Below are positions 1 through 52,744 of a stretch of 64,000 nt of DNA, in pieces; position 1 is the stretch's first letter, and every line of letters starts with the position of its first letter. Where the stretch lies: assembly GCA_003609755.1 (NCBI GenBank), contig AP017991.1, positions 3,266,001 through 3,330,000 on the forward strand. The letters run 5' to 3'. Both the position numbers and the translations under genes were made by a program. This DNA comes from Planktothrix agardhii NIES-204 (GTDB lineage: Bacteria > Cyanobacteriota > Cyanobacteriia > Cyanobacteriales > Microcoleaceae). The notes below the pieces were generated by a model. It worked only from the letters and a program-made list of their open reading frames with translations. It made no database searches and was not told where the DNA came from.

Positions 1-2630
1 TCTGGGATAGTTATTTGAGTAGGAATAGTACCAGTAAAGTCAGCCACACTAGCAGTACCCGTTAATGCTAAATCAAGGGTTTGAGCGCCGACAACATTAC
101 CTTCAGCAGTAGCGGTCAAGGTAATAGCAGTTGCCCCGGCTTCACTAGCAGTAGTTGGGCTGGCAGTCAGGTTAACTTTTGGTGCGGGAATGGTAATATT
201 AAAAGTAGCTATGTCGGAAAGATCGACACCACCATTGGCCGTACCGCCGTTATCTTGCAGTTGCACACTAACGGTAGCAGTACCGGGTTTACCACTGGGA
301 GTGTAGGTCAGCGTGCCATCAGTTGCTACACTGGGTTGAGCGGTAAATAAGGTATTGTCGGTGTTAGTAACGGTGTAGTTGCTAACAGTTTGAGTTGATT
401 CATTGGCGGGGCCGAAGATAACAGTATTTGCCCAATTACTAACGCTTTGAGCCGTACTTGTCCAAGCTGTTAGGATTTGGTTGCCAGCGTTACTAAAACT
501 GGGTTTGTCATTAACTGCGGTAACAGTGATGGCTGCGGTGTCGGTGAGGGCGCTGAAGACTGTGCTACCGCCGTTGGTGCTAGTGTCAGCAGTGCTGCCA
601 TTAGCACCCGCCATTTGATCCCAAGCGCGGAAGGTAATGCCGTTGGTGACAGTGCCGTTGTAGTTGGGAGTTGGTTGGAAATAAATGCGGGTATTGGCAT
701 TAGCTGCCAGTAGGCGAGCATTGGTATCGGATACTGCGCCCAAAGCAGTCCAAGTAGTACCGCCATCTATGGTGTAAAACCAACTGCCGTTAGTGGTGTC
801 GGCCCCGGTGATGGCTACCCCTGCGACTGCGCCAGTGTCGGAGTCGGTGATGTTTGTACCGATAGCTGCAATGGATGAGATGAGGTTGCCGACTGCGCCA
901 GTGGGAACATCTGCATCTTCTAGGATGGGAGTGAGGGTGACAACGGTATCGGCAAGAACGGGGGCGGTATTAAGAAGAATCGTGCCATAAACATCCTTAT
1001 TGTCTTGGTTAGATCCTTGACCGTTGGCGGGAGTGTTAGCAGCTGGAGTGTTAGCTTGGTTGCCAGCGTTATTGCCGGTAAAGGTGGCCCCTAATGAGGT
1101 GACAGTAGGGAGTGCGGTGGGCATTCCTTGGTCGTTGCCATTGGTGTTGGTGAGGGATGTCATGGCAAATATTGCCCCACCTTTGCCTTGGCCGGGGTTG
1201 GTTTCACTACTACTGGGACTGGTTCGGGCGCCATTACCGCCTGTGGCAGTGTTGTTACTAAAGGTTGCGTTGTTTAGAGTCAAAGATCCTTGGCGAATAA
1301 AGATGGCACCCCCAAGGCCAGCGCCACCGCCGCCGGATCGGCCGTTAGTGCCAATGCCGTTGCCACCAAACCTGCCACCGGTACCAGTGGTGTTTATGAC
1401 ACCACCACCACCGCCACCGTAGCCGCCGTTGCCACCCCCGCCGGGGCCCCAGCCCCCACCGCCGCCGAAGCCGCCGTTGCCACCACGTTGGCCGCGACCA
1501 GCACCGCCGCCGCCGCCGAACCCCCCTGCGCCCCCGACGGTCTGCGGATCGTTTCTGATGGTGCCACCTCCACCGAAAAGGCCAATGCCACCACCGTAGT
1601 TGCCGTTGCCGCCATAGCCGCCGCCAGTTCCACTGCCATTGGCAAACAGACCGCCGCCACTGCCACCAGATGTGGTACTACCGAACATCCCGCCGCCACC
1701 ATAGCCGCCACTATAGGCGCCAGCCCCAGTACCGCCGATCGCGGTATTGTTACTAAAGGTGACGTTATTCACCCCCACAGTGCCATTGTAGATGAATAAA
1801 CCGCCACCCATGCCAGCGCCACGACCGCCGTCGTAAGCAGCTCCTCCTTGTGCCTTACTGTTGGTGACTGTCATGTTGGAGAAATTCACGGTTCCCGACT
1901 TGACGAAGAAGGGACGAAAAGCATTATCGCCACTGACAGTATGGTTATTGCCAATAAAATCAATATTGCTGTTAACTAGGGTCTTCATTACCCCTTTAAC
2001 AGTAACGTTTGTTTGTAGGGTAATAGTGTCATCGCCTGCGGCCTTATTCGCGTCTAAAATGGCTTTGCTTAATGTACCTGCTAGAGTGCCAGTGCCATCA
2101 TCATTTGCTACCGTGACATCAAAGTTAGCCAGTGTATAGTCATAATCTGCCATCGCCTCTTGATTAAAGGGTACGGTGGCTTCTATTTTGCCCGTTACTA
2201 TTTCTAAATCCCAGTCGCCACCTAATGCTTGATTTCCGGTTAAGTCGTTAGAGGCAGCGACATCTGCCCCGGTAATTTCACTTAATCGTTCAACAAAATT
2301 CTTGCCAGTTTCTCCGGCGGCTACGTCGCATCCATACAATAGGATATCGCCATTTTCTGTGAGGGCATTTCCCCACTGTTTTAGCTGAGTATTAAAATTT
2401 TCTATATCATTCCCATTCAGTACATCAGTACCGAGTTTTAAACTGCCTTCGCTACCGTGAGAAAGTATCTGTACAGATTCAATATTTTTTTGATTAGCTA
2501 AGGCATTAGTAATTTGTTCAATCCCGCTAGATATGTTATCTAAAATTACAATTTGAGCGGTATCGGCGTTATCAATTAGGCTTTGATAATCTTGTACCGA
2601 GGAGTCTACGAAAATGACTTGCTTGTTCAT
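1..2630 (-). CDS. DUF4347 giant surface/secreted protein, N-terminal part (3' end outside window)
   Basis: The frame is open from an ATG at 2630 to the left edge, so about 876 N-terminal residues are visible and the C-terminus is missing. Residues 1-170 match DUF4347, a domain found at the N-terminus of very large cyanobacterial surface proteins: MNKQVIFVDSSVQDY, SHGSEGSLKLG, ILLYGCDVAAGETG, TGADVAASNDLTG and a GGDWDLE ending. A right-handed beta-helix or Pmp-like region follows with two FSNNTA motifs (near 1740 and 1250), separated by about 140 residues that are mostly glycine. Further on are Ig/cadherin-like segments (DTAAITVTAVNDKP) and a Calx-beta-like GTASVADFTGTIP. It is probably an exported adhesin or matrix protein; DUF4347 itself has no proven biochemical role. 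Confidence is high for the gene and family, low for function. Confidence 0.88.
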   Translation of the reverse strand, partial: MNKQVIFVDSSVQDYQSLIDNADTAQIVILDNISSGIEQITNALANQKNIESVQILSHGSEGSLKLGTDVLNGNDIENFNTQLKQWGNALTENGDILLYGCDVAAGETGKNFVERLSEITGADVAASNDLTGNQALGGDWDLEIVTGKIEATVPFNQEAMADYDYTLANFDVTVANDDGTGTLAGTLSKAILDANKAAGDDTITLQTNVTVKGVMKTLVNSNIDFIGNNHTVSGDNAFRPFFVKSGTVNFSNMTVTNSKAQGGAAYDGGRGAGMGGGLFIYNGTVGVNNVTFSNNTAIGGTGAGAYSGGYGGGGMFGSTTSGGSGGGLFANGSGTGGGYGGNGNYGGGIGLFGGGGTIRNDPQTVGGAGGFGGGGGAGRGQRGGNGGFGGGGGWGPGGGGNGGYGGGGGGVINTTGTGGRFGGNGIGTNGRSGGGGAGLGGAIFIRQGSLTLNNATFSNNTATGGNGARTSPSSSETNPGQGKGGAIFAMTSLTNTNGNDQGMPTALPTVTSLGATFTGNNAGNQANTPAANTPANGQGSNQDNKDVYGTILLNTAPVLADTVVTLTPILEDADVPTGAVGNLISSIAAIGTNITDSDTGAVAGVAITGADTTNGSWFYTIDGGTTWTALGAVSDTNARLLAANANTRIYFQPTPNYNGTVTNGITFRAWDQMAGANGSTADTSTNGGSTVFSALTDTAAITVTAVNDKPSFSNAGNQILTAWTSTAQSVSNWANTVIFGPANESTQTVSNYTVTNTDNTLFTAQPSVATDGTLTYTPSGKPGTATVSVQLQDNGGTANGGVDLSDIATFNITIPAPKVNLTASPTTASEAGATAITLTATAEGNVVGAQTLDLALTGTASVADFTGTIPTQITIP

Positions 2631-2866
2631 AGTTGGCAATTCCATAATTGCTGAAATCCTTAATATCTATTGTTTATGTTTAAGTTTGGTTGGAGTTTCA
2701 AACCCACCCTCAAAGATGAAGTTCTCTTAATCCGAAAACTTGTGATTAAGTAGGTGGTCATAATTAAAGTTAAAATCCTAAATGCTGTAAGCCCTTTAGA
2801 ATGAGGATTTTAGCTTTCGGTTTGTTGACGTTATTTATGCCCGCCTACTTACAGCCGAGGTTAGAT

Positions 2867-2956
2867 TCCCCTAAATCATCCTCCCCCCGTGTACGGGGGG
2901 GTAAAGGGGGACTTGGAGATCCTGTGTCCCCCTTTTTAAGCAGGGTTAGGGGGGAT
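2867..2956. repeat. Dispersed C/G-run palindromic repeat
   Basis: The stretch between the DUF4347 gene and the sulfotransferase holds a low-complexity element with a near-palindrome, CCCCCCGT-GT-ACGGGGGG at 2883-2900, and alternating runs of five or six C or G. The same core occurs at 21341-21358 and 34139-34156. Its right part reaches into the 3' end of the sulfotransferase gene. The rest of 2631-2945 shows no convincing gene; a short ORF there is mostly repeat sequence. Confidence 0.7.
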
Positions 2957-3791
2957 CATTTTTTACAGTTTCTTTCGCTTTCGCTACAATCGCACTAGCG
3001 CGGCTATTTGTAGTCTCTGTCCAAAAAGATAAACTATTAAATTGCTCAAATAAATCGGGCGGTAAAATAGTTGTTCTTGGTTTAAACTCGACTTGTGATC
3101 GCACTTGATGTAACCCTTTTGTTTGCAGTCTATTATCAAATTCTGGCTCCTGATATTCAACATTCTCGAAATCATGCTCAAAAGTATCTTCGCCCAGAAA
3201 TTGATAAATCAACGACATAGTTTTAGCCGGATTTTTGGTTAATAAATCGTAATCAACCAATAGGAGAGATGCACTCTGTTCGCTGTAGAATGCTTCCTTA
3301 AGAGCATTATAGGCATAACCCACTAAACGCGAACCTTGACTTAATGCCTCGGTGCGACTGTAGACTGTAGCCCGTTCTGCTGGATTATTAAATAACCGGG
3401 AAACATCAAAGGCGTTGCGCCGAATCAGTAGCTCAATGCTATCCATAATCCAAGCAATATTTCTGACACAGCAGATTACTTTTGCTTCGGGAAATAGTTC
3501 CAGAATTAATGGCAATTTGCTGCACCAAAGCCGATTGGTATCAAAGATGATTTCTTTTTCAACTTGCGGGTGGTAATAAGCAGAAAATATGCTCATAATC
3601 AGCGCCCGTTTTTGTTCCGGGGAAATGAATACCGAAAACTCATTGTTTTCACTCATGGCTTCCAACATTCGCTCCACTAAACCCCCCACAGGGCTAGTCA
3701 TAGCTGCATGAAACCGGGGATTTTGGCGTAGTATTGCTGCCAGTAAAGTAGAACCTGATCGTGGTAGTCCTGATATAAAGTGGGCTTTCAC
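2946..3791 (-). CDS. Sulfotransferase family protein
   Basis: This protein of 281 residues should transfer a sulfuryl group from PAPS to an unknown acceptor. It begins with the 5'-phosphosulfate-binding loop GLPRSGSTLL at residues 8-17, and the 3'-phosphate-binding region appears as EAKVICCVRNIAWIMDSIE around residues 100-118. The length is normal for a one-domain P-loop sulfotransferase. The last codons (N-D-P-P-stop) lie within a dispersed CCCCCC repeat, so the repeat has supplied the present C-terminus and the ancestral end may have been different. The gene runs in the same direction as the DUF4347 gene, with 315 bases between. The substrate (glycan, lipid or peptide tyrosine) cannot be told from sequence. 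Confidence 0.85.
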   Translation of the reverse strand: MKAHFISGLPRSGSTLLAAILRQNPRFHAAMTSPVGGLVERMLEAMSENNEFSVFISPEQKRALIMSIFSAYYHPQVEKEIIFDTNRLWCSKLPLILELFPEAKVICCVRNIAWIMDSIELLIRRNAFDVSRLFNNPAERATVYSRTEALSQGSRLVGYAYNALKEAFYSEQSASLLLVDYDLLTKNPAKTMSLIYQFLGEDTFEHDFENVEYQEPEFDNRLQTKGLHQVRSQVEFKPRTTILPPDLFEQFNSLSFWTETTNSRASAIVAKAKETVKNDPP

Positions 3792-4150
3792 TGGCTTCGG
3801 TGTTGCAATGCTTACAGGTAGAATGGTTTGTTGTTGAGTCAGTCTGGTTAGGTCACCTGAATTAATTTAAAAGGCTGTATTTATACCTTTATACAGATGA
3901 CACGCGACACTTTCAATATAAATAACCTAACAAGGTGCTTTTCGGTTGTCAATGGTTTAGCCGCTCAATGACAAATCTTTATATTTATTTGAGATATTTT
4001 ACAGAAATTATCAAAAAAGTCGCAGTGATAACGTGGCGCAGGGGCGGGTTTATGATATTATTGATTTTATGTGTTTGTGTTATAGTCAAAAAAAGTAAAT
4101 ATAAATAACCATCTGCGTTAATCTTTACTATATTATTTCCAGGTGATACT
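3792..4150. other. Gene-free spacer between divergent genes
   Basis: This AT-rich spacer lies between the minus-strand sulfotransferase and the plus-strand Rpn genes. Only a short implausible minus-strand ORF crosses it. Promoters for both directions presumably lie here. The sequence just before the first Rpn start (ctatattatttcc) resembles the short spacers before copies 2 and 3, so it is probably the ancestral leader of the duplicated unit. Confidence 0.5.
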
Positions 4151-5140
4151 ATGAAATTTATTAATCCCAAAACAGACTACGCCTTTAAAAAAATCTTTGG
4201 TTCGGATCAAAGTCAAGATATTTTAATTAGTTTTCTGAATGCAATTGTCTATCAAGGTGAGACTTTTATCACTTCTTTAGAAATTATTGATCCCTACGCC
4301 CCCGGCAGAATTTCTGGTTTAAAAACCACTTATTTTGATGTTAAGGCTCAACTGAATAACGGCGAAAATGTATTAATTGAAATGCAGGCGTTTAATGTCC
4401 CAGCTTTTGGCAAAAGGATTCTTTATAATACGGCAAAAATGTATGTTAATCAACTGAAGTTAGGGGAAGTTTATCCAGAATTAAGAGCAGCAATTGGTGT
4501 AGCGGTGACGGATTTTATTATGTTTAATGAACATAATAAAGTCATTTCACAATTTACGCTCAAGGAAGATGAGTTACAAGTAAATTATCAACATAGTCCG
4601 TTAAAATTAGTATTTGTGGAGTTACCCAAATTTAATAAAACTCTGGAAGAATTAACAACTATTACGGATAAATGGCTTTATTTTTTACGCAAAGCACCGG
4701 ATTTAGAAGTAGTGCCAGAATCTATGTTAATTGTACCGGAAATTGAGAAGGCTTTTGCGATCGCTGATCGGGTAAACTTAAGTTTAGAGGAAGTAGATGA
4801 TTTGGAGAAACGAGAACAGTTTGAACGGGAAAGAATAGGTGCTATTGAGTTGGGTAAGGCTCAAGGGTTGGCTGAAGGGTTGACTCAAGGGCGTGCTGAA
4901 GGGCGTGCTGAAGGTATTGAAATTGGTGAACAAATTGGTGAACAAATTGGTGAACAAAGGGGTAAAATAAATTTGATTAAACGCCAATTAAAACGGCAAT
5001 TAGGTGAACTAAATCAATCAATAGAAGATAGTTTATCACAGCTAACTTCAGAGCAATTATCAGCTTTGGCTGAAGCTATTTTCGACTTTTCTAATGTAGG
5101 TGATTTATCCAGTTGGCTAGAAACTAATTGCCCTAGTTGA
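4151..5140 (+). CDS. Rpn family PD-(D/E)XK nuclease / putative transposase, copy 1 of 3
   Basis: This is a PD-(D/E)XK nuclease-family 'transposase' (PDDEXK_2, related to E. coli Rpn recombination-promoting nucleases). The family signature MKFINPKTDYAFKKIFGS opens the protein, and the nuclease core follows as FDVKAQLNNGENVLIEMQ (about residues 78-95), with D and E-x-Q as the metal-binding residues. After about residue 215 a charged linker leads to a variable tract of G-x-A-E-G-R and G-E-Q tetrapeptides, then a conserved tail (KINLIKRQLKRQLGELN) that resembles a coiled coil. The ATG is preceded by AGGTGATACT. Related proteins cut DNA, promote recA-independent recombination, and have been linked to phage defence. 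The gene is the first of a head-to-tail triplication. An in-frame TTG at 4802 with GAGGAAG eight bases upstream could start a C-terminal fragment of about 112 residues. Confidence 0.9.
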   Translation: MKFINPKTDYAFKKIFGSDQSQDILISFLNAIVYQGETFITSLEIIDPYAPGRISGLKTTYFDVKAQLNNGENVLIEMQAFNVPAFGKRILYNTAKMYVNQLKLGEVYPELRAAIGVAVTDFIMFNEHNKVISQFTLKEDELQVNYQHSPLKLVFVELPKFNKTLEELTTITDKWLYFLRKAPDLEVVPESMLIVPEIEKAFAIADRVNLSLEEVDDLEKREQFERERIGAIELGKAQGLAEGLTQGRAEGRAEGIEIGEQIGEQIGEQRGKINLIKRQLKRQLGELNQSIEDSLSQLTSEQLSALAEAIFDFSNVGDLSSWLETNCPS

Positions 5141-5193
5141 ACATGACTGAGGTATTATCTAAGTCCCTACCTATATTATTTTCCACTAACACT

Positions 5194-6159
5194 ATGAAAT
5201 TCATTAATCCCAAAACAGACTACGCCTTTAAAAAAATCTTTGGTTCGGATCAAAGTCAAGATATTTTAATTAGTTTTCTGAATGCAATTGTCTATCAAGG
5301 TGAGACTTTCATCACTTCTTTAGAAATTATTGATCCCTACGCCCCCGGCAGAATTTCTGGTTTAAAAACCACTTATTTTGATGTTAAGGCTCAACTGAAT
5401 AACGGCGAAAATGTGTTAATTGAAATGCAGGCGTTTAATGTCCCAGCTTTTGGCAAAAGGATTCTTTATAATACGGCAAAAATGTATGTTAATCAACTAA
5501 AATTAGGGGAAGTTTATCCAGAATTAAGAGCAGCAATTGGTGTAGCGGTGACGGATTTTATTATGTTTAATGAACATAATAAAGTCATTTCACAATTTAC
5601 GCTCAAGGAAGATGAGTTACAAGTAAATTATCAACATAGTCCGTTAAAATTAGTATTTGTGGAGTTACCCAAATTTAATAAAACTCTGGAAGAATTAACA
5701 ACTATTACGGATAAATGGCTTTATTTTTTACGCAAAGCACCGGATTTAGAAGTAGTGCCAGAATCTATGTTAATTGTACCGGAAATTGAGAAGGCTTTTG
5801 CGATCGCTGATCGGGTAAACTTAAGTTTAGAGGAAGTAGATGATTTGGAGAAACGAGAACAGTTTGAACGGGAAAGAATAGGTGCTATTGAGTTGGGTAA
5901 GGCTCAAGGGTTGGCTGAAGGGATACAAATTGGTGAACAAATTGGTGAACAAAGAGGTGAACAAAGGGGTGAACAAAGGGGTAAAATAAATCTGATTAAA
6001 CGCCAATTAAAACGGCAATTAGGTGAACTAAATCAATCAATAGAAGATAGTTTATCACAGCTAACTTCAGAGCAATTATCAGCTTTGGCTGAAGCTATTT
6101 TTGATTTTTCTAGTGTAGGTGATTTATCCAGTTGGCTAGAAACTAATTGCCCTAGTTGA
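5194..6159 (+). CDS. Rpn family PD-(D/E)XK nuclease / putative transposase, copy 2 of 3
   Basis: This second tandem copy is almost identical to copy 1 over the nuclease domain, with a handful of mostly silent base changes. I chose the ATG at 5194 because it matches the start of copy 1; the frame stays open upstream to a TTG at 5137, but those 19 codons are spacer sequence. The variable tract is shorter here and dominated by G-E-Q-R/I units in place of G-R-A-E. All predicted catalytic residues are kept, so it is not visibly inactivated. The spacer from copy 1 is only 53 bases with no clear terminator, so co-transcription is likely. The in-frame internal TTG with its GAGGAAG site is conserved at 5845. 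Confidence 0.88.
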   Translation: MKFINPKTDYAFKKIFGSDQSQDILISFLNAIVYQGETFITSLEIIDPYAPGRISGLKTTYFDVKAQLNNGENVLIEMQAFNVPAFGKRILYNTAKMYVNQLKLGEVYPELRAAIGVAVTDFIMFNEHNKVISQFTLKEDELQVNYQHSPLKLVFVELPKFNKTLEELTTITDKWLYFLRKAPDLEVVPESMLIVPEIEKAFAIADRVNLSLEEVDDLEKREQFERERIGAIELGKAQGLAEGIQIGEQIGEQRGEQRGEQRGKINLIKRQLKRQLGELNQSIEDSLSQLTSEQLSALAEAIFDFSSVGDLSSWLETNCPS

Positions 6160-6212
6160 ACAGGACTGAGGTATTATCTAAGTCCCTACCTATATTATTT
6201 TCCACTAACACT

Positions 6213-7214
6213 ATGAAATTCATTAATCCCAAAACAGACTACGCCTTTAAAAAAATCTTTGGTTCGGATCAAAGTCAAGATATTTTAATTAGTTTTCTGA
6301 ATGCAATTGTCTATCAAGGTGAGACTTTCATCACTTCTTTAGAAATTATTGATCCCTACGCCCCCGGCAGAATTTCTGGTTTAAAAACCACTTATTTTGA
6401 TGTTAAGGCTCAACTGAATAACGGCGAAAATGTATTAATTGAAATGCAGGCGTTTAATGTCCCAGCTTTTGGCAAAAGGATTCTTTATAATACGGCAAAA
6501 ATGTATGTTAATCAACTAAAATTAGGGGAAGTTTATCCAGAATTAAGAGCAGCAATTGGTGTAGCGGTGACGGATTTTATTATGTTTAATGAACATAATA
6601 AAGTCATTTCACAATTTACGCTCAAGGAAGATGAGTTACAAGTAAATTATCAACATAGTCCGTTAAAATTAGTATTTGTGGAGTTACCCAAATTTAATAA
6701 AACTCTGGAAGAATTAACAACTATTACGGATAAATGGCTTTATTTTTTACGCAAAGCACCGGATTTAGAAGTAGTGCCAGAATCTATGTTAATTGTACCG
6801 GAAATTGAGAAGGCTTTTGCGATCGCTGATCGGGTAAACTTAAGTTTAGAGGAAGTAGATGATTTGGAGAAACGAGAACAGTTTGAACGGGAAAGAATAG
6901 GTGCTATTGAGTTGGGTAAGGCTCAAGGGCGAACTGAAGGGTTGACTCAAGGGCGTGCTGAAGGGCGTGCTGAAGGGCGTGCTGAAGGGCGTGCTGAAGG
7001 GCGTGCTGAAGGGCGTGCTGAAGGTATTGAAATTGGTCAGATAAATCTGATTAAACGCCAATTAAAACGGCAATTAGGTGAACTAAATCAATCAATAGAA
7101 GATAGTTTATCACAGCTATCATCAGAGCAGTTATCGGCTTTGGCTGAAGCTATTTTCGACTTTTCTAGTGTAGGTGATTTATCCAGTTGGTTAGAAACTA
7201 ATTGTCCTAGTTGA
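6213..7214 (+). CDS. Rpn family PD-(D/E)XK nuclease / putative transposase, copy 3 of 3
   Basis: The third tandem copy has the longest variable tract: seven consecutive or near-consecutive copies of a 12-base unit encoding G-R-A-E, at about 6948-7023, where copy 1 has two or three. The nuclease domain and the C-terminal helical tail are otherwise the same as in copies 1 and 2. The ATG at 6213 is chosen by alignment with copy 1; the frame is open upstream to 6156. The length differences are whole multiples of the repeat codons, which suggests slipped-strand change under selection to keep the frame. The putative internal TTG start lies at 6864. A hairpin follows the stop codon. Confidence 0.88.
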   Translation: MKFINPKTDYAFKKIFGSDQSQDILISFLNAIVYQGETFITSLEIIDPYAPGRISGLKTTYFDVKAQLNNGENVLIEMQAFNVPAFGKRILYNTAKMYVNQLKLGEVYPELRAAIGVAVTDFIMFNEHNKVISQFTLKEDELQVNYQHSPLKLVFVELPKFNKTLEELTTITDKWLYFLRKAPDLEVVPESMLIVPEIEKAFAIADRVNLSLEEVDDLEKREQFERERIGAIELGKAQGRTEGLTQGRAEGRAEGRAEGRAEGRAEGRAEGIEIGQINLIKRQLKRQLGELNQSIEDSLSQLSSEQLSALAEAIFDFSSVGDLSSWLETNCPS

Positions 7215-7232
7215 AATAGAATAAACTAAGAA

Positions 7233-7255
7233 TCCACTAGCCTTTAGGTAGTGGA
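7233..7255 (+). terminator. Hairpin between convergent Rpn copy 3 and YajQ genes
   Basis: Perfect 7-base arms TCCACTA and TAGTGGA enclose a 9-base loop that can add a further CC/GG pair. It lies 19 bases after the Rpn stop and before the end of the convergent yajQ-like gene, so it may terminate in either direction. There is no long T tract, so this is only moderately supported. Confidence 0.45.
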
Positions 7256-7283
7256 GTATCAATCAAAGATAACTGTGTATATT

Positions 7284-7775
7284 TTACCTATAGTTTGTAA
7301 ACTGTAATGCAGCCGGATAATCTTCTTCTTTCAGACGCTGAATTACTAATTGTAAATCATCTTTAGATTTAGCTGAAATCCTAACAGAATCCCCCTGAAT
7401 AGATGCTTGTAATTTTTTAAATTCATCTTTAATTAATTTAGTGATTTGTTTTGATACTTCTTGAGTTAAACCTTTTCTGAGTTTAATTTCCTGTCTGACT
7501 CGATTACCACTGGAAGATTCTACTTTCCCATAATCAAAAATCTTCAAAGAAAGATTCCGTTTAGCGGATTTAGTTTGCAAAATTGTATGAATTGCATCGA
7601 GGGTAAACTCGCTATCTGTATTAACTATAATCGCAGTTTCCCCTAATTCTAGGGTAGTCTTAGTATCTTTCAAATCATAACGGCTTTTAATTTCCCGTTC
7701 GGTTTGATCAACAGCATTAACTAATTCCTGGCGGTCAAAATCACTAACAATATCAAATGAATAAGTAGAAGCCAT
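7284..7775 (-). CDS. yajQ: YajQ family nucleotide-binding protein
   Basis: This protein of 163 residues matches the YajQ/UPF0234 family along its full length: [20 protein letters not shown] at the N-terminus, [11 protein letters not shown], the central KIFDYGKVE, and the C-terminal [17 protein letters not shown]. Family members fold as two ferredoxin-like domains; some bind cyclic di-GMP or GTP and act with transcription factors in proteobacteria, but the role in cyanobacteria is not established. The ATG at 7775 (M-A-S-T) is preferred over an upstream in-frame TTG at 7781. It stands alone, convergent with the Rpn genes. Confidence 0.92.
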
Positions 7776-7810
7776 AGTCAATTGTAATTATTTAATAAAA
7801 AAACTATCAG

Positions 7811-7841
7811 CGTAGAGACGTGCCAAGAGCGCGTCTGTACG
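7811..7841. repeat. Dispersed hairpin repeat (GTAGAGACG type)
   Basis: Arms GTAGAGACG and CGTCTGTAC flank a short loop, giving a strong hairpin with one mismatch. A sibling with the same arms and the loop TGCCATGG lies at 34234-34261. This type of motif is common between genes in cyanobacterial genomes. Here it sits between the yajQ-like gene and the DprA-like gene and could stabilise or terminate transcripts. Confidence 0.6.
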
Positions 7842-7870
7842 AGTGACTGATTCAACATTGGTATTAACTA

Positions 7871-8374
7871 CTAATCCAAATAGAATAGCGTCACAATTTT
7901 GCGCTGATTTTCAGCTTCCTCACAGGTACTTAGGAGGGTGACACTATCATGGTAGGCAAAACAGATTAACTGTTGACACCGAGAAATAATCTGTTGGTTG
8001 CAAAACCCACTAGCTTCAGCTAGGGATAAATCATCACCCTTAGCATTTTCCACCACATGAATCACCTGTTCTAACTGCTGGCGGGACTCCCTAGGCTGAC
8101 GTTTCATGCTTTGGGGCAAAATTACCGTCAACAAATTGGGGTTAGCCCGCATTGCGCCTCGAATCGCCGCCGCGTTCGTTCCCGTTGAACCCGATGTAAT
8201 CAAATGATTGCCTTCTAAAACCAAGGCATAACTCATCATCTCGATCAAGTTTTGATGGGTTAGGGGAATATGGCGGGAACCCAACAAAGCAACACGCTTG
8301 GAGCCAGTTTGTTGAATGGCTGCCAATTCTTCTAAAAAGTCATCTACTTTCGGCAGATTGATAGATTGGTTCAA
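7871..8374 (-). CDS. DprA/Smf-like Rossmann protein ('DNA recombination-mediator protein A')
   Basis: This short protein of 167 residues has a single Rossmann-like core typical of the DprA/LOG superfamily: VALLGSRHIPLT at residues 28-39, GNHLITSGSTGTNAAAIRGAM in the middle, and LLTVILPQS. The equivalent DprA motifs are GSR and SGxAxGID-AH. It lacks the extra domains of full-length DprA. Cyanobacterial homologues usually carry the name 'DNA recombination-mediator protein A', but evidence for a transformation role is thin. Binding of a nucleotide or single-stranded DNA is plausible. It is divergent from the carotenoid oxygenase, with about 110 bases between, and monocistronic. Confidence 0.75.
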   Translation of the reverse strand: MNQSINLPKVDDFLEELAAIQQTGSKRVALLGSRHIPLTHQNLIEMMSYALVLEGNHLITSGSTGTNAAAIRGAMRANPNLLTVILPQSMKRQPRESRQQLEQVIHVVENAKGDDLSLAEASGFCNQQIISRCQQLICFAYHDSVTLLSTCEEAENQRKIVTLFYLD

Positions 8375-8484
8375 GGATAATTACAAAATATAATCAGGAC
8401 AATCCTGTAGATTTTAGCAAATTCAGCGACAATTATTCTGAGTGCAACTAAAGTTTTTATCTAATTTCATTGACTGTGATTGTT

Positions 8485-9912
8485 ATGACAGCAACAACCG
8501 CCCAACCGACCTGGAATCAACAGTTTACCAGCCCCGCAACTGAGTTTCCGCCCACACCCTTACCCATTTTGTCGGGAAAAATACCCTCTGGGTTACGGGG
8601 TTCTTTATATCGTAATGGCCCAGGACGATTGGCACGGGGAGGACACCGAGTTGGACATTGGTTTGATGGAGATGGGGCAATTTTAGGGGTTCATTTCAGC
8701 GAAAAAGGGGCAACCGGGGTCTATCGTTATGTTCAAACCGCAGGCTATCAAGAGGAAGAACAAAAAAACCGTTTTATCTATGGTGGCTATGGAATGAAAC
8801 CTTCGGGAAACCTTTGGGAACGTTTTCGTAAACCCCTAAAAAATGCGGCGAATACTTCAGTTTTAGCTTTACCCGATAAATTATTGGCGTTGTGGGAAGG
8901 GGGACAACCCCATAGTTTAGATTTAGAAACCTTAGAAACCCAGGGACTGGACAACCTCCAGGGTTTAGCTGAAAATACCCCCTATTCTGCTCACCCTAAA
9001 ATTGATCCCGAAACCGGGGATATTTTTAATTTTGGGCAAATTTTGGGGCCGACTCCTGAGTTAATTTTATATCGGAGCGATCGCACGGGTAACATCAAAC
9101 AACAAAATAAAATTCCTCTGGATGGGATTTCTGCCCTGCATGATTTTGTCCTAGCGGGTGAATATTTAATTTTTGTAATTCCCCCACTGCGGTTAAAACT
9201 TTTACCCGTATTTCTTCAGTTGAAATCCTTTAGTGAAGCCCTATCCTGGCAACCCCAAACCCCCACCCAAATTTTAATAATTGATCGTCATAATTTAACC
9301 TTAGTTAATCGGATTGAAACTGAACCTTGGTTTCAGTGGCATTTTAGCAATGGTTATGTTGCAACAGATGGAACGGTTATTGTTGATTTTGTCCGATATC
9401 AAGATTTCCAAACCAATCAATATTTGAAAGAAGTTGCCACCGGAAACACTCAAACCTTAGCAAAATCGACCTTATGGCGGATGGTATTGCAACCTCAAAC
9501 GGGTAAATTACTACAATTGGAAGAACTCTGCGATCGCCATTGTGAATTTCCCTCGGTCAACCCCCAAGAAGTGGGAAAAAAAGCTCAATTTACCTATTTA
9601 TCCCTTCATAAATCCGGTATTAATCCGGCGGTCGAAATGTTTGGCACAATTGGACGTTTTAATCATCAAACCCAAACCTTAACTACCGCCAATTTAGGGG
9701 AAAATCGTTATCCGATGGAACCTTTATTTGTTCAAGATCTCGATCATCCTCAACAGGGTTGGGTTTTAACCATTGTTTATGATGCTCGGCAAAATTCCAG
9801 CGAAGTTTGGATATTTGATGCCCAATCTTTAAACACGGAACCTGTTTGTCGGTTAGGATTACCCCATGTAGTTCCGAATGGATTTCATGGAACTTGGAAA
9901 CCCGCGACTTAG
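8485..9912 (+). CDS. Carotenoid oxygenase family protein (apocarotenoid cleavage dioxygenase type)
   Basis: This is an iron(II)-dependent carotenoid/apocarotenoid cleavage oxygenase (RPE65/CCD/ACO family, about 475 residues). It has the N-terminal PSGLRGSLYRNGPGRL and HWFDGDGA signatures, and four metal-ligand histidines in the usual contexts: SAHPK, LHDF, WHFSNG and, at the C-terminus, GFHGTW. The cyanobacterial prototype is apocarotenoid-15,15'-oxygenase, which makes retinal from apocarotenals. The ATG at 8485 (M-T-A-T-T-A-Q) is preferred; the frame is open to GTG 8476 and TTG 8470. A paralogue lies at 44046. It is monocistronic and followed by leuS. The exact substrate is unknown. Confidence 0.92.
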   Translation: MTATTAQPTWNQQFTSPATEFPPTPLPILSGKIPSGLRGSLYRNGPGRLARGGHRVGHWFDGDGAILGVHFSEKGATGVYRYVQTAGYQEEEQKNRFIYGGYGMKPSGNLWERFRKPLKNAANTSVLALPDKLLALWEGGQPHSLDLETLETQGLDNLQGLAENTPYSAHPKIDPETGDIFNFGQILGPTPELILYRSDRTGNIKQQNKIPLDGISALHDFVLAGEYLIFVIPPLRLKLLPVFLQLKSFSEALSWQPQTPTQILIIDRHNLTLVNRIETEPWFQWHFSNGYVATDGTVIVDFVRYQDFQTNQYLKEVATGNTQTLAKSTLWRMVLQPQTGKLLQLEELCDRHCEFPSVNPQEVGKKAQFTYLSLHKSGINPAVEMFGTIGRFNHQTQTLTTANLGENRYPMEPLFVQDLDHPQQGWVLTIVYDARQNSSEVWIFDAQSLNTEPVCRLGLPHVVPNGFHGTWKPAT

Positions 9913-10001
9913 GTTTGATAATCAGGCGAAATCGGTGGGGGTATAACCTCACCAATATGTAAAAATAATAAACAAATAAGAAAACGTATCCGGCACAAAG
10001 T

Positions 10002-12575
10002 ATGGCTGTGGAGTCTCGATATCATCCTGCATCCCTCGAACAAAAGTGGCAACAAACCTGGGAAGAACAGGGGTTGTATAAAACCCCAACCGATAAAAAC
10101 AAGCCCAAATTTTACGCCCTATCCATGTTCCCCTATCCGTCGGGGAGTCTACACATGGGTCACGTTCGCAATTACACTATTACCGACGTGATCGCCCGAC
10201 TCAAACGGATGCAAGGCTATCGTGTCTTACATCCGATGGGGTGGGACGCCTTTGGACTCCCTGCCGAAAATGCCGCCATTGACCGAGGAATTCCTCCGGC
10301 GGAATGGACATATCAAAATATTGCCCAAATGCGGGAACAACTGCAAAAGTTAGGATTCTCCATTGATTGGGAAAAGGAAGTTACCACCTGTTCCCCGGAA
10401 TATTACCGTTGGACACAATGGCTGTTTTTACAATTCTATAAGTGCGGACTTGCCTATCAAAAAGAAGCCGCGGTGAATTGGGACCCAATTGATCAAACGG
10501 TGCTTGCTAATGAACAAGTCGATAATGAGGGAAGATCTTGGCGGTCTGGAGCTATTGTTGAACAAAAATTATTGCGTCAATGGTTCCTAAAAATTACCGA
10601 CTATGCTAACGAATTGCTCAACGATTTAGAGCATTTAAACGGCTGGCCAGAACGGGTTAAATTAATGCAGGCTAACTGGATCGGACAATCCATTGGGGCA
10701 CAGTTAGAATTTCCGATCATTGGGTTAGATGAAAAGATTGCTGTTTTTACCACCCGTCCCGATACGGTTTATGGGGTTTCCTATCTCGTATTAGCCCCAG
10801 AACATCCCTTAGTTGCTCAGGTGACAACCCCGGAACAAAAAGCCGCCGTAGAAGCATTTATTCAAGAGGTAAAAAACGAAAGTCAAACCGATCGCACCTC
10901 AGAAGATAAACCGAAACGCGGCGTTCCTACGGGGGGAAAAGCCCTTAATCCTTTTAATGAAGAAGAAATTCCGATTTGGATTGCGGATTATGTTTTATAT
11001 GGATATGGAACAGGCGCGGTCATGGGAGTTCCGGCCCATGATCTGCGTGATTTTCAATTTGCCACTCAATACGATTTACCCATCAAACAGGTGATTGTTC
11101 CCGATGATGCGGATAATGATAATGAGGAAAATGATCGGATCACAACGGCCTATACGGGGACGGGAATTTTAGTCGAATCCTGTAATTTTAGTGGGGAAAA
11201 TTCCGAACACGGAAAACAAGCAATTATTAACTATGCAGAAGATGAAGGATATGGCAAAGGAATTATTCAATATCGCCTCAGAGATTGGTTGATTTCCCGT
11301 CAACGCTATTGGGGAACTCCGATCCCAATTATTCACTGTCCGAATTGTGGGGCGGTGGCTGTTCCCGATCAAGATTTACCCGTAAAATTGCCGGAAAATG
11401 TAAAATTTAGTGGTCGAGGTTTATCTCCTTTAGCCCAATTAGAAGATTGGATTAATGTGCCTTGTCCGAGTTGTGGAACTCCTGCTAAACGGGAAACCGA
11501 TACCATGGATACTTTTATTGATTCTTCTTGGTATTATTTGCGTTATCCTGATGCCAAAAATGATCAACAAGTCTTCAATCCAGCTATTACTAATGATTGG
11601 ATGGGGGTAGATCAATATGTGGGCGGAATTGAACACGCCATTTTGCATTTATTATATTCTCGATTCTTCACAAAAGTTGTGCGCGATCGCGGATTATTAC
11701 ATTGTAAAGAGCCCTTTGAAAAGTTATTAACTCAAGGGATGGTACAGGGAATTACCTATAAAAACCGCACCACAGGTAAGTATTTTTCCGCTTCCCAAGT
11801 TAGTCCGAGTAATCCCCAAGATCCGACCACGGGAGAAAGGTTAGAAGTCTTCTATGAGAAGATGTCTAAATCTAAATATAATGGGGTTGATCCGTTAGAA
11901 GTGATGGGTAAATATGGGGCTGATACCGCCCGAATGTTTATTCTATTTAAAGCTCCTCCTGAGAAGGATTTAGAATGGGATGATGCCGATGTTGAGGGAC
12001 AATTTCGCTTCTTAAATCGGGTTTGGAGAATTGTTACTGAATTTGCTGAAATTACGACTTCTAAACCTAAGAATCGAGAATTAACTAAAGTCGAAAAAGA
12101 CTTAAAACGGGCGATTCATACGGCTATTAAAGAAGTCAGCGAGGATTTAAACGGAGACTATCAATTTAATACGGCGGTATCTGAATTGATGAAACTCAGT
12201 AATGCTTTATCAGAAGCGAATTGTCAGGAGTCTATTGTTTATTCTGAAGGCATTGAAACCCTGTTAAAATTATTAGCTCCCTTTGCCCCCCATATCGCGG
12301 AGGAATTATGGCAATTGATTGGAAAAACGGGTTCAATTCATACTCAAATATGGCCTGAGCATGAGCCAGAAGCCTTGGTAGTTGATGAAATTACCTTAGT
12401 GATTCAAATTAATGGAAAAACCCGCGGCACGCTGCAAGTCCCAGCAACCGCCAATCACCAAACTTTAGAAGAATATGCCCGAAATTCTGAAGTTAGTCAA
12501 CGTCATATTGGGGATAAAACCATTAAAAAAGTGATTGTTGTCCCAGGAAAATTAGTTAATTTTGTGGTCGTTTAA
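10002..12575 (+). CDS. leuS: Leucyl-tRNA synthetase
   Basis: The enzyme charges tRNA-Leu with leucine in the cytoplasm. At 857 residues it has normal bacterial LeuRS length. The class I signature HMGH is at residues 51-54, preceded by FPYPSGSL, and the second signature KMSKSKYNG is near residue 620. The editing domain ([20 protein letters not shown]) and zinc-type cysteine pairs (HCPNCG, PCPSCG) lie in between. The C-terminal [14 protein letters not shown] is also diagnostic. It is followed by a strong intrinsic terminator, so it is probably transcribed alone. Confidence 0.98.
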
Positions 12576-12603
12576 CCTAGAATGGTTAAAATACTTTAAG
12601 ATG

Positions 12604-12634
12604 CCTCCAAACTTTTCCGGTTTGGGGGTTTTTT
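12604..12634 (+). terminator. Intrinsic terminator after leuS
   Basis: A 9-base stem, CCTCCAAAC with GTTTGGGGG (one G-T pair), has a short loop and is followed at once by six T residues. This is a textbook rho-independent terminator 28 bases after the leuS stop codon. Confidence 0.9.
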
Positions 12635-12709
12635 ATAAAGGGAATCAACTATCTGTGAACCTGAATTTATCAACGAATAAAAACTTATCGGGTGCTTCAG
12701 TCTCTGGGT

Positions 12710-13510
12710 TTAAGTCAATAACATATTTAAACTAATGAATAATAAAAATAAAGCAAAAGCCATCCGTAATTTTTCCCCTGAAATTAAATGGGAAAGTGAT
12801 GTCCCTAAAAAAGCTCCTAAAATTGTAAATGGGGCGATTAATAATAATGCTGGCCAGTAAATATATCCAATAAATCCAGGTAGAAAAGAATCACCATGGG
12901 AAGATAATAGAAAAGCCAGAGTTCCTAAAATAGAAATTGGTAAACTAAAGGATGAAGATGTTCCCACGACTTCATACATAGGTAATCCACAATAAATTAA
13001 AAAAGGAACACTAATTGCGCCACCTCCAACTCCTAGGAGTCCTGACTTAAAACCGATTCCCAACCCAACGGCGTTGATTATAGCTAATCTTGGTAAGGAT
13101 TCTGATTGTACTTGAGGTTTAAAATCTAACAATAGTTTAACAGAAATCAATAATAAAAATAATCCGAAAATAATTTTAAGTAAAGCACTAGATAAAGTAT
13201 GATCTAATAAAGCACCTAATAAAACACCTAATAAAATCCCCGGAATAATTTTCCAAAAAACTCCCCATTGCACATCTCCTTTAGAATGGTGTGCCACAAT
13301 CGAAGCAGTCGCCGTAAAAGTCATTATACTCATCGAAGTGGCGATCGCACTGTGCATCACGAAATCGGGCGGAAAGTCCATTAAATTAAAAATATAAAAT
13401 AACCCAGGGACAACTAACATTCCCCCACCAATACCGAGTAATCCGGCCGTTGTTCCCGCGGCTAGTCCCAATATTGCTAATAATACCCAAGGTAGAATCC
13501 CCATGATCAT
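12710..13510 (-). CDS. Sulfite exporter TauE/SafE family membrane protein
   Basis: This integral membrane protein of about 267 residues has the duplicated TauE/SafE signature: AGTTAGLLGIGGGMLVVPGL near the N-terminus and GIGFKSGLLGVGGGAISVPFLI in the second half, each opening a set of helices. Family members export organosulfur or sulfite anions, though many cyanobacterial paralogues are unassigned. The frame is open far upstream (to 13747), but the upstream part is cysteine- and histidine-rich, lacks family similarity and overlaps the petH promoter region, so I start at the ATG at 13510 (13504 is also possible). It is divergent from petH and ends facing the leuS terminator. Confidence 0.85.
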   Translation of the reverse strand: MIMGILPWVLLAILGLAAGTTAGLLGIGGGMLVVPGLFYIFNLMDFPPDFVMHSAIATSMSIMTFTATASIVAHHSKGDVQWGVFWKIIPGILLGVLLGALLDHTLSSALLKIIFGLFLLLISVKLLLDFKPQVQSESLPRLAIINAVGLGIGFKSGLLGVGGGAISVPFLIYCGLPMYEVVGTSSSFSLPISILGTLAFLLSSHGDSFLPGFIGYIYWPALLLIAPFTILGAFLGTSLSHLISGEKLRMAFALFLLFISLNMLLT

Positions 13511-13735
13511 CAAAAAATATCCAGTTTCAAGCAATAGGCCGAATGTATTGTGGCACAAATTTTCAAAGCACGCTTCTCCCAAACTGTGATTAATTCCGAT
13601 TAGCCGATGAACACTAAGCTGTAAAATAGTGCAAAGTGCAAATTGACAACAGTGACGGCCCTCAAGCCAGTTTGAGAGGGAAAAGTAATATTTAACTGTT
13701 TCTGTCCATCGCACGTTAAAAAAACTGGCAAGTGA

Positions 13736-14995
<1,260 letters not shown>

Positions 14996-15297
14996 ATCAG
15001 TTATCAGTTATCAGTTACCAGTTATCAGTTACCAGTTATCAGTTGCCAGGTTAATAATTTATTTAAGTTGAAAATCACCGATTATAAACTGGTTCTTAAC
15101 TGTTTTAAGTTAACTACAATAAGCAGTTAACTTAAAAATAGTTATTCAATGACAACTGTTAACTGACAAATCAAAATCAATTATTTACTATAATAACTAA
15201 TAACTGATGACTGATGACTGATGACTGATGATTGATAACTGATAACTGATGACTGATAACTGATAACTGATGACTGATGACTGATGACTGATAACTG
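14996..15297. repeat. Short tandem repeats (ATCAGTT / AACTGAT heptamers)
   Basis: The spacer after petH begins with several CAGTTATCAGTTAC units and ends with about 14 units of the opposite orientation (ACTGATGACTGATA) abutting the next gene. The two blocks form an inverted pair around about 140 bases of AT-rich sequence. These are STRR-type repeats typical of filamentous cyanobacteria. A minus-strand ORF in the right block is purely repeat-encoded and is not annotated. Confidence 0.9.
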
Positions 15298-16266
15298 ATG
15301 AATGATTATTTTATGATTCCAAAAACTGGCATTGCAATGTACCAAAAGCGACTTTTTGCTCTGCATAAAAGTCAAATTTATACTAATTTAGATGATGAAA
15401 TTGATCAGCCAAATTATCAAGATTGGCTGGATATATTAAATCAAGAATCTGATTTAATCCAAGATAAAATTGCCAAAAAATCTGATTCATCTCGTCTGAA
15501 TATTTTATTAGGAGATTCCCTAAGTATGTGGTTTCCTAATAGTTTATTACCATCGGAAGCATTATGGTTGAATCAAGGGATTTCAGGGGATACGACAAGC
15601 GGAATTTTAAAACGTCTGGATATTTTTGCTAAGAATAATCCTAATAATATTTATATTTTAGCTGGAATTAATGATTTAAAAAGGCAAGTTCCCGTTGTAG
15701 AGATATTAGAAAACCATCAAAAAATCTTAGATTATTTACAAAAAAATTATCCTGAAACTCAAATTTTAGTTCAATCTATTTTTCCGACTCAATTACCAAC
15801 AGAAACTCTAAAATTTTCGATTCCAAATTCTTTAATTAAAGAACTAAATCAAAAGTTAGCCCAACAAGTTAACGACCAAGGAAGCATCTATTTAGACTTT
15901 CATCAACGATTTACTAATACCCAAGGAAATATTCGCTCTGAATTAACAACCGATGGTTTACACCTGAGTCCAGAAGGTTACAAAGTTTGGCAATTTGCCC
16001 TCAAACAAACCGAGTCTCGCCTATCCAAAAATCGAGATCATAACTATCAAAAATGGTTACAAAAATCATCAGAACTTCCCTTAAATGGACAGTCCTACCG
16101 TTGGGTTTCCTATAAAGTTAAACCTGGAGATACCCTAGAAAAAATCACCCTAAAAACATTAGGACAACAGGATTTCGATTATTGCGATTTAATCTCCATC
16201 CGCAATAACCTAATATCAGAGGTTCTCCCTCCAGATCAGTCAATCGAAATCCCCCAACTTATCTAA
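15298..16266 (+). CDS. SGNH/GDSL hydrolase with C-terminal LysM-like domain
   Basis: This protein of 322 residues (or fewer) is predicted to be a GDSL-type esterase or lipase. The four SGNH blocks are visible: LLGDSLSMW (nucleophile Ser), NQGISGDTTSG (Gly), LAGINDLKR (Asn) and TDGLHLSPEGY (Asp/His). The last 50 residues, YKVKPGDTLEKITLKTLG to the end, resemble a LysM peptidoglycan-binding repeat, which suggests action at the cell wall. The first ATG overlaps the end of a heptamer-repeat array, so the first residues may be repeat-derived; ATGs at 15313 and 15337 are alternatives. No clear signal peptide is visible. The substrate is unknown. Confidence 0.8.
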   Translation: MNDYFMIPKTGIAMYQKRLFALHKSQIYTNLDDEIDQPNYQDWLDILNQESDLIQDKIAKKSDSSRLNILLGDSLSMWFPNSLLPSEALWLNQGISGDTTSGILKRLDIFAKNNPNNIYILAGINDLKRQVPVVEILENHQKILDYLQKNYPETQILVQSIFPTQLPTETLKFSIPNSLIKELNQKLAQQVNDQGSIYLDFHQRFTNTQGNIRSELTTDGLHLSPEGYKVWQFALKQTESRLSKNRDHNYQKWLQKSSELPLNGQSYRWVSYKVKPGDTLEKITLKTLGQQDFDYCDLISIRNNLISEVLPPDQSIEIPQLI

Positions 16267-42442: not shown

Positions 42443-42443
42443 A

Positions 42444-42605
42444 TCAGTTATCAGTAAACAGCTATCAGTTATCAGTGCAGAAGTTATCAGTTATCACCGT
42501 AAAATTTATCGGTTGTCAGTTAACAGTAAAGAGATGACTGATGACTGATGACTGTTAACTGATGACTGATGACTGATGACTGATGACTGATGACTGTTAA
42601 CTGAT
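42444..42605. repeat. Short tandem repeats (ATCAGTT / GATGACT heptamers)
   Basis: The spacer after hom starts with CAGTTATCAGTAAACAGC-type units and ends with about ten GATGACT or GTTAACT units in the complementary sense, like the array after petH. There is no gene in it. Confidence 0.88.
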
Positions 42606-52589: not shown

Positions 52590-52744
52590 CAGGTAATGGG
52601 TAATGGGTAAAGAAACAGGCAATGGGTAGTAGGTAATCGGCAATAGGTAAACAATCAATTCTTAAACCCATTACCCATTACTCATTACCCATTACTCAAT
52701 TCTTACACTGATTACTGATTACTGATTACTGATTACTGATTACT
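52590..52744. repeat. Short tandem repeats within the V4R cluster
   Basis: AGGTAATGGGTAATGGGT at the left and CCCATTACCCATTACTC in the middle are complementary blocks, followed by four or five units of TGATTAC running up to the next start codon. No gene. Confidence 0.88.

What the first reader, a model, noticed from the sequence alone, without database searches (positions are those of the whole stretch)
4151..7214. Head-to-tail triplication of an Rpn nuclease gene with a hypervariable 12-base repeat tract
Three copies are almost identical in the nuclease domain but differ in the tract that follows: G-R-A-E or G-E-Q units present two to seven times. All length differences are in-frame. Such a pattern suggests recent amplification and slippage kept under selection, as expected for a defence or conflict gene.
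Basis: seen in the sequence. Interest (0 to 1): 0.72.

Follow-up and report, generated by a model that had tools for sequence, protein, structure and literature searches.

The report
Tandem Rpn nuclease genes, stuttering tails
A cyanobacterium of the genus Planktothrix carries three head-to-tail copies of one nuclease gene whose nuclease parts are identical in protein but whose tails hold different numbers of a four-residue repeat; the copies likely act as bacterial toxin-antitoxin units, probably against phages, and the repeat number would decide which tail can silence which nuclease.

Summary
Three head-to-tail Rpn genes (PDDEXK_2 nuclease, GX3 repeat tract, DUF4351 tail) lie at 4151-7214 of a Planktothrix chromosome. 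Their nuclease domains are protein-identical (1-5 synonymous differences in 717 nt); the tracts hold 8, 6 and 9 four-residue units, and a fourth copy elsewhere holds 4. Planktothrix rubescens PCC 7821 has a three-copy array at the same site; its third copy has two units fewer and one other substitution in 846 nt compared. So array and tract variation are not assembly artefacts.

The class is known: Rpn toxin-antitoxin systems with hypervariable four-residue repeats and tandem arrays (Zhong et al. 2023). What I add: within the genome the tail differs 3- to 33-fold more per base than the nuclease domain, although between genomes it is not faster, so the copies look like recombinational mosaics. 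The 58 distinct tracts examined differ only by whole 12-nt units. The same tract-DUF4351 tail sits behind two other N-domains, also in arrays (up to 13 units), some with tail-only units starting at the internal ATG.

That repeat number insulates co-resident pairs is plausible but unproved: pooled permutation P 0.012, but 0.11 when tract-less arrays are counted, and no signal in the window's own family.

The parts
4151..5140 (+). Rpn copy A1: PDDEXK_2 nuclease domain (residues 6-232), tract, DUF4351 tail (residues 265-323)
5194..6159 (+). Rpn copy A2 from its ATG (the open frame extends upstream to a TTG at 5137)
6213..7214 (+). Rpn copy A3 from its ATG (the open frame extends upstream to a TTG at 6156)
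4868..4966 (+). repeat tract of A1, 8 four-residue units
5911..5985 (+). repeat tract of A2, 6 units
6930..7040 (+). repeat tract of A3, 9 units, six of them identical RAEG units in DNA
4967..5137 (+). DUF4351 tail of A1 (would-be antitoxin part)
   Evidence: function inferred from PMC10327210
5986..6156 (+). DUF4351 tail of A2
7041..7211 (+). DUF4351 tail of A3
4802..4804 (+). candidate internal start TTG (codon 218) of A1, GAGG at 4787-4790; same codon at 5845-5847 (A2) and 6864-6866 (A3)
   Evidence: predicted only
4141..4147 (+). Shine-Dalgarno-like AGGTGAT before A1; absent before the ATGs of A2 and A3
   Evidence: read from sequence
5141..5193 (+). 53-bp spacer A1-A2; its end resembles the leader of A1
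6160..6212 (+). 53-bp spacer A2-A3, one base different from the A1-A2 spacer in the printed stretch

Best explanation
The window holds three head-to-tail copies of one Rpn gene (PDDEXK_2 nuclease domain, variable tract of four-residue units, DUF4351 tail) that likely work as toxin-antitoxin units: the tail, predicted to be made also on its own from an internal start, would pair with the full-length nuclease through the tract helix and hold it inactive, and the number of units would set which tail fits which nuclease. Shown here: domain order, identical nuclease-domain protein, tract change only by whole 12-nt units in the tracts examined, tract change between strains at the same site, and tails more diverged than nuclease domains within the genome. 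Inferred: tandem duplication of a unit of about 1 kb, then exchange between copies that kept the nuclease part alike while slippage and older tail variants kept the tails different. From published E. coli work: the tail inhibits the nuclease, one extra repeat breaks the pairing, and one Rpn restricts some T-even phages. Untested: expression, internal start, toxicity, pairing and phage defence of these copies.
For: Family: PF12784 E about 1e-50, PF14261 E about 1e-17, TIGR01784 142-145 bits against a cut-off of 52. Residues that correspond to RpnA D11, D63, E82, Q84 and R94 are D9, D63 (invariant in the 52-row alignment) and E77, Q79, R89 (90% or more) (correspondence by eye). Tract lies in one predicted helix that is 12 residues (3 units) longer in A3 than in A2. 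Copies and strains differ by whole units. Between-strain +2 units with 1 other substitution in 846 nt. Tail versus nuclease-domain divergence. Codon 218 is TTG in 21 of 21 copies and the only one of 22 invariant leucine codons fixed as TTG. Stand-alone DUF4351 ORF of 85 aa in the same genome and tail-only units that start at the internal ATG in a sister family. Published mechanism: PMC10327210.
Against: No experiment on these genes. The internal start is a TTG with only GAGG 11 nt upstream, lies 22 residues before the first variable unit (published range 8-20), and among 4 more distant homologues only 1 has TTG there. No PADLOC family beyond one weak match; downstream ORFs are not defence genes. 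Model confidence is moderate (pLDDT 79 and 81.5, pTM 0.64) and no solved structure matched by sequence. Mosaic pattern has 5 of 21 counter-examples in this family and is absent in DUF2887 arrays.
Confidence: 0.6

Rival explanations
1. Neutral array: tandem duplication plus replication slippage in a 12-nt repeat, with the tract a mere helical linker; tract differences have no function and only the open frame is selected.
For: Perfect 12-nt RAEG units in A3; two copies of PCC 7821 have identical tracts; in the window's own family equal tract lengths are as common within genomes as shuffling predicts (2 observed, 2.6 expected, P 0.53); counting tract-less arrays lifts the pooled P to 0.11.
Against: In E. 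coli one added repeat abolishes cross-inhibition (PMC10327210). All 58 tracts step by 12 nt, never by 3, 6 or 9, although slippage by whole units alone could explain that. Tail divergence exceeds nuclease-domain divergence within genomes.
Confidence: 0.27
2. A DNA-mobilising element ('putative transposase') that spreads its own copies.
For: Annotation of relatives; variable copy number and site; RpnA raises RecA-independent recombination (PMC5350276, abstract and passages).
Against: Copies are head to tail with 53-bp spacers; the inverted repeats found lie inside the coding sequences or pair one copy with another, none brackets a unit; the fourth copy moved as part of a segmental duplication with 4.8 kb of flank. 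PMC10327210 argues against transposition.
Confidence: 0.06
3. Assembly artefact: copy number or tract lengths are wrong.
For: Copies are about 95% alike and repetitive; the Tychonema copies with identical nuclease domains come from a scaffolded draft.
Against: Copies differ by substitutions as well as tracts; an independent five-contig genome has three copies at the same site and its third copy is nearly identical to A3 outside the tract.
Confidence: 0.02

Closest known systems
Rpn toxin-antitoxin systems RpnL/RpnS (Zhong et al. 2023, PMC10327210; TIGR01784 / COG5464)
   Same: Nuclease domain, C-terminal tail with four-residue repeats whose number varies between strains, DUF4351 tail named there as RpnS in some species, gene arrays from tandem duplication.
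   Different: Near-identical nuclease copies with different unit numbers side by side in one genome; a cyanobacterium; candidate internal start is TTG; no internal start or activity shown here.
RpnA (YhgA) of E. coli, Transposase_31 (Kingston et al. 2017, PMC5350276)
   Same: Corresponding catalytic residues of the PD-(D/E)XK core.
   Different: Different Pfam nuclease family (PDDEXK_2 instead of Transposase_31); activity not tested here.
EcoR124I / EcoR124II TAEL repeat (as told in PMC10327210)
   Same: Number of a four-residue repeat in a helix switches specificity.
   Different: There the spacing in the DNA target changes; here the change would be in protein pairing.
FliH and Yae1 GX3 repeats (Trost and Moore 2009, PMC2674601, abstract only)
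   Same: Runs of GxxxG repeats of variable number, probably helical.
   Different: Matches are below the curated cut-offs and cover the tract and its surroundings only: shared repeat chemistry, not membership.

Membership tests
Rpn toxin-antitoxin | Rpn nuclease domain above curated cut-off | tested here: met
   PF12784 172 bits (cut-off 27.4); TIGR01784 142-145 bits (cut-off 52.1)
Rpn toxin-antitoxin | Catalytic PD-(D/E)XK residues kept | tested here: met
   D9, D63, E77, Q79, R89 against the RpnA residues in PMC5350276, matched by eye
Rpn toxin-antitoxin | C-terminal tail with four-residue repeats that vary between strains | tested here: met
Rpn toxin-antitoxin | Repeats lie in a long first helix of a small helical tail | tested here: inconclusive
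   Predicted: helix 212-276 (A2) or 212-288 (A3), then three short helices; not compared with 7TH0 directly
Rpn toxin-antitoxin | Tail translated separately from an internal start | tested here: inconclusive
   TTG218 conserved in 21 of 21 close copies but in 1 of 4 more distant ones; sister family has tail-only units
Rpn toxin-antitoxin | Tail inhibits the toxic full-length protein | not testable with these tools
   needs expression
Rpn toxin-antitoxin | Phage defence | not testable with these tools
   PADLOC: one weak match of two proteins scanned
Autonomous transposon | Terminal inverted repeats that bracket the unit | tested here: not met
   9 inverted pairs of 14 nt or more in 3840-7400, all made of two palindromic stretches inside the genes
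Autonomous transposon | Target-site duplication | not tested
   no clean single-unit insertion against an empty site was aligned
FliH / Yae1 | Family score above curated cut-off | tested here: not met
   FliH at most 43.3 bits (cut-off 180); Yae1_N at most 20.8 (cut-off 27.5)

The most novel reading that the evidence does not exclude
Repeat number is a barcode. These arrays are repertoires of toxin-antitoxin pairs that share one nuclease but are insulated from each other by unit count: slippage mints a new private pair in one step, because toxin and antitoxin are read from the same DNA. Exchange between copies keeps the nuclease alike while tails stay distinct. Tail-only units, whose lengths match no full-length copy beside them (0 of 24 tail-nuclease pairs in two genomes), would be antitoxins kept against incoming or past nucleases.
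Probability: 0.2. Interest if true: 0.75.

Novelty: new member of a known kind. Interest (0 to 1): 0.45.

Why it matters
Rpn repeats were known to vary between strains and to change pairing when altered in the laboratory. This genome gives a natural series: identical nuclease domains with 4, 6, 8 and 9 units in one cell. That makes it directly testable whether repeat slippage creates private toxin-antitoxin pairs in one mutation. The relatives also suggest that the tract-DUF4351 tail is a portable module found behind at least three N-domain families.

Tried and rejected
Internal start at TTG234, next to the tract: rejected, not conserved (TTA in B1 and B2, TTT in Y1).

Tree incongruence of nuclease domain against tail: weak. 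Of 5 tests, one could not run, one rejected ({B1,B2,By1} as a clade in the nuclease data, p-AU 0.017) and three did not (0.193, 0.45, 0.623). The groups were named after seeing the data.

'Nuclease homogenised, tail divergent' as a general rule: rejected. It holds in 16 of 21 within-genome pairs of the window's family, in 5 of 6 and 4 of 6 pairs of the Transposase_31-like arrays, and not in the DUF2887 arrays (tail higher in 29 of 78 and 12 of 28 pairs).

'Co-resident copies must differ in tract': rejected as a strict rule (B1 = B2). As a tendency: pooled P 0.012; by family 0.53, 0.076, 0.044. A first, smaller set gave 0.031. When the tract-less arrays L312, L315 and L318 are counted as zero units, P is 0.11; this check led me to lower the novel reading from 0.25 to 0.2. 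Pairs are not independent, between-genome orthology can inflate the null, unit counts of G205, G171 and G210 were read by eye, and arrays were picked by adjacency from match lists that are cut off.

Rows dropped: of the Rpn pieces only full-length copies were kept (21 in 10 genomes); fragments in L012, L056, L061, L062 and L064 were left out, as were L059 and L060, which lie at contig ends. In one search, 68 of 120 listed proteins did not fit the split pattern (3874 were found, 120 listed). In one search one 5'-truncated G010 unit was left out. Of the 20 loci, L310, L313 and L314 entered; 6 had no DUF4351 unit by my profile (L316, L317, L319, L321, L328, L329), 2 had one (L311, L320), L312, L315 and L318 had no or almost no tract, and L322-L327 I judged by eye too divergent.
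Full report
WHAT IS THERE. The window is G000:C1:3266001-3330000 of a 5.08-Mb, five-contig genome. A genome labelled same species (G045; contig of 5,464,396 bases) has the contig length of Planktothrix rubescens PCC 7821 chromosome LR882958.1, so I read the host as the P. agardhii/rubescens group (inference). Three ORFs lie head to tail at 4151-5140, 5194-6159 and 6213-7214. Each has PDDEXK_2 (PF12784), a tract of GX3 units and DUF4351 (PF14261); A1 and A3, the two scanned, belong to the Rpn family by NCBIfam.

HOW THE COPIES DIFFER. I call them A1, A2, A3 and Ax (the copy at C1:1427041). Codons 1-239 are identical in protein; pairs differ at 1-5 of 717 nt, at 6 sites in all, each synonymous (about 8e-5 by chance for 6 of 6). 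The tract has 8, 6, 9 and 4 units. The tail (174 nt) differs at 4-12 sites per pair, 3 to 33 times more per base. Fisher p per pair: A1-A2 0.079, A1-A3 4e-4, A1-Ax 2e-6, A2-A3 1e-5, A2-Ax 2e-4, A3-Ax 3e-6.

IS THE TAIL SIMPLY FASTER? No. I compared 21 full-length copies from 10 genomes. Over 189 between-genome pairs mean synonymous divergence is 0.316 (nuclease) and 0.232 (tail). Over 21 within-genome pairs it is 0.069 and 0.167, with the tail higher in 16 of 21. In Tychonema bourrellyi three copies have no synonymous difference in the nuclease domain and 0.17-0.39 in the tail; identity breaks down from nt 707-728 on, at the tract. That genome is a scaffolded draft, so this case needs long reads. 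The simplest reading is recombination between copies that evens out the nuclease domain while older tail variants persist. Counter-examples: B1-B2 of PCC 7821 have identical tract and tail but 6 synonymous nuclease-domain differences, and B1-By1, B2-By1, B3-By2 and U1-U2 also run the other way. Tree tests are weak.

BETWEEN STRAINS. PCC 7821 has three copies at the same site (window 3859-14000 aligns at 97.7%) and two at a second site. Its third copy equals A3 in the compared 156 nt of tail, differs by one synonymous site in 690 nt of nuclease domain, and has four RAEG units instead of six. So in this pair the tract changed by more than everything around it. Of 10 genomes of the genus, 9 have a strong match to the downstream flank: two carry three copies there, G047 one, and six show no Rpn gene within about 1.5 kb (in G046 180 nt of the upstream region match at 75%). 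The array is therefore accessory, with variable copy number. Ax shares 4.8 kb of flank at 99.5% with the window's locus and a further 1.3 kb, which runs into the gene, at 98%; the next unit there is cut off after 47 codons.

TRACT RULES. From the 21 copies and 52 of 120 listed proteins I obtained 58 distinct tract strings of 11 lengths, all 2 mod 4: among these only whole 12-nt units change. The predicted structures put the tract inside one helix, 65 residues in A2 and 77 in A3; the difference of 12 residues equals three units (mean pLDDT 79.2 and 81.5). Each unit would lengthen a helix rather than a loop.

INTERNAL START. [quoted passage not shown] Here codon 218 is TTG in 21 of 21 copies and is the only one of 22 invariant leucine codons fixed as TTG among 12 distinct copies, with GAGG 11 nt upstream (AGGAGGTG at 8 in K1). 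It lies 22 residues before the first variable unit and 17 before the first glycine of the GX3 register. In 15 contexts drawn from the fetched loci it is TTG 12 times, but 11 of these are the close family; of the 4 more distant ones 1 has TTG, 2 ATC, 1 TTA. I call it predicted, not shown. A sister family is clearer: in G009 and G010 (single-contig genomes) arrays contain 8 full-length genes with a weak Transposase_31 match and 6 tail-only units. All 14 share an internal ATG with GAGG 9 nt upstream; the tail-only ORFs have it as their first ATG, and their likeness to the full-length genes stops at nearly the same point, 83-85 codons upstream, in all six.

THE SAME TAIL BEHIND OTHER DOMAINS. DUF2887-tract-DUF4351 genes form arrays of 13 (G009), 8 plus one truncated (G010) and 5 (G205) units (Pfam scan of one member each of G009 and G205). 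Unit counts along the G009 array are 4,4,2,1,9,5,9,7,0,5,2,8,0. In the G009 and G010 arrays the N-domain is not more uniform than the tail (0.045 vs 0.033; 0.037 vs 0.020), so the mosaic pattern is not general. What recurs is tract variation from copy to copy.

DO COPIES AVOID EQUAL TRACTS? Pooling three N-domain families, 10 of 182 within-genome pairs share a length against 66 of 554 between genomes; shuffling lengths among genomes within families gives 17.2, P 0.012 one-sided. By family: 0.53 (the window's), 0.076, 0.044. Counting arrays without a tract as zero units gives 14 of 187 and P 0.11. Shared descent should make array members more alike, so the deficit is interesting, but it is not robust. 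The 6 tail-only units match none of the full-length copies beside them (0 of 16 and 0 of 8 pairs).

MECHANISM. Zhong et al. (PMC10327210; I read parts 1-3 of 4 of the preprint text, not its supplement and not the journal version) report for E. coli that the tail inhibits the nuclease, that the RpnA tail dimerises through the helix that carries the repeats, that one added repeat abolishes inhibition and matching restores it, and that RpnP2 restricts some T-even phages. They also report tandem rpn arrays and DUF4351 as the name of RpnS in some species. The window's genes meet the sequence criteria. I infer that each copy is such a unit and that tract differences would change pairing among copies; this is untested.

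LITERATURE. The listings showed no paper on Rpn arrays in Planktothrix (several listings are capped); the preprint text holds no 'cyanobacter', 'paralog' or 'gene conversion'. Only open-licence PMC papers are searched. PMC5350276 was seen as abstract and passages, PMC2674601 as abstract and section list, PMC12707154 as passages.

VERDICT. Real, well supported, not an artefact, and of a known kind. The added value is a natural within-genome series for a specific, testable idea.

Noticed in passing
L244 (G009:C1:5785001-5805000), L246 (G010), L310 (G205): Head-to-tail arrays of DUF2887-tract-DUF4351 genes, 13, 8 plus one truncated, and 5 units, with unit counts from 0 to 9.
   Followed up: partly
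L245 (G009:C1:2446001-2460000), L247 (G010:C1:1214001-1228000): Arrays that mix full-length Transposase_31-like genes with tail-only units; the tail-only ORFs begin at the internal ATG that the full-length genes also have.
   Followed up: partly
L015:4261-4518: Stand-alone 85-aa DUF4351 ORF with GX3 units in the window's own genome, away from any Rpn gene in the stretch read: a candidate orphan antitoxin.
   Followed up: partly
window 1-2633 and left of it; L012, L050, L051: At four loci (A, Ax, B, By) the Rpn genes lie beside the 5' end of a giant gene with a DUF4347 start and long internal repeats; the window's locus and Ax share 4.8 kb at 99.5%.
   Followed up: partly
window 2946-3791: Sulfotransferase-family ORF (Sulfotransfer_3) between the giant gene and the array; not found at Ax, where 208 bp stand in place of about 1 kb.
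   Followed up: partly
window 14996-15306, 42443-42605, 52655-52744: Heptamer tandem repeats (ATCAGTT and variants), of a kind common between cyanobacterial genes (recalled).
   Followed up: no
window 25887-26332: Two-copy 222-bp tandem repeat, 97% alike.
   Followed up: no
L061:6316-7243: Broken array remnant (C-terminal part followed by an N-terminal part) about 6 kb from a single intact copy in G047.
   Followed up: partly
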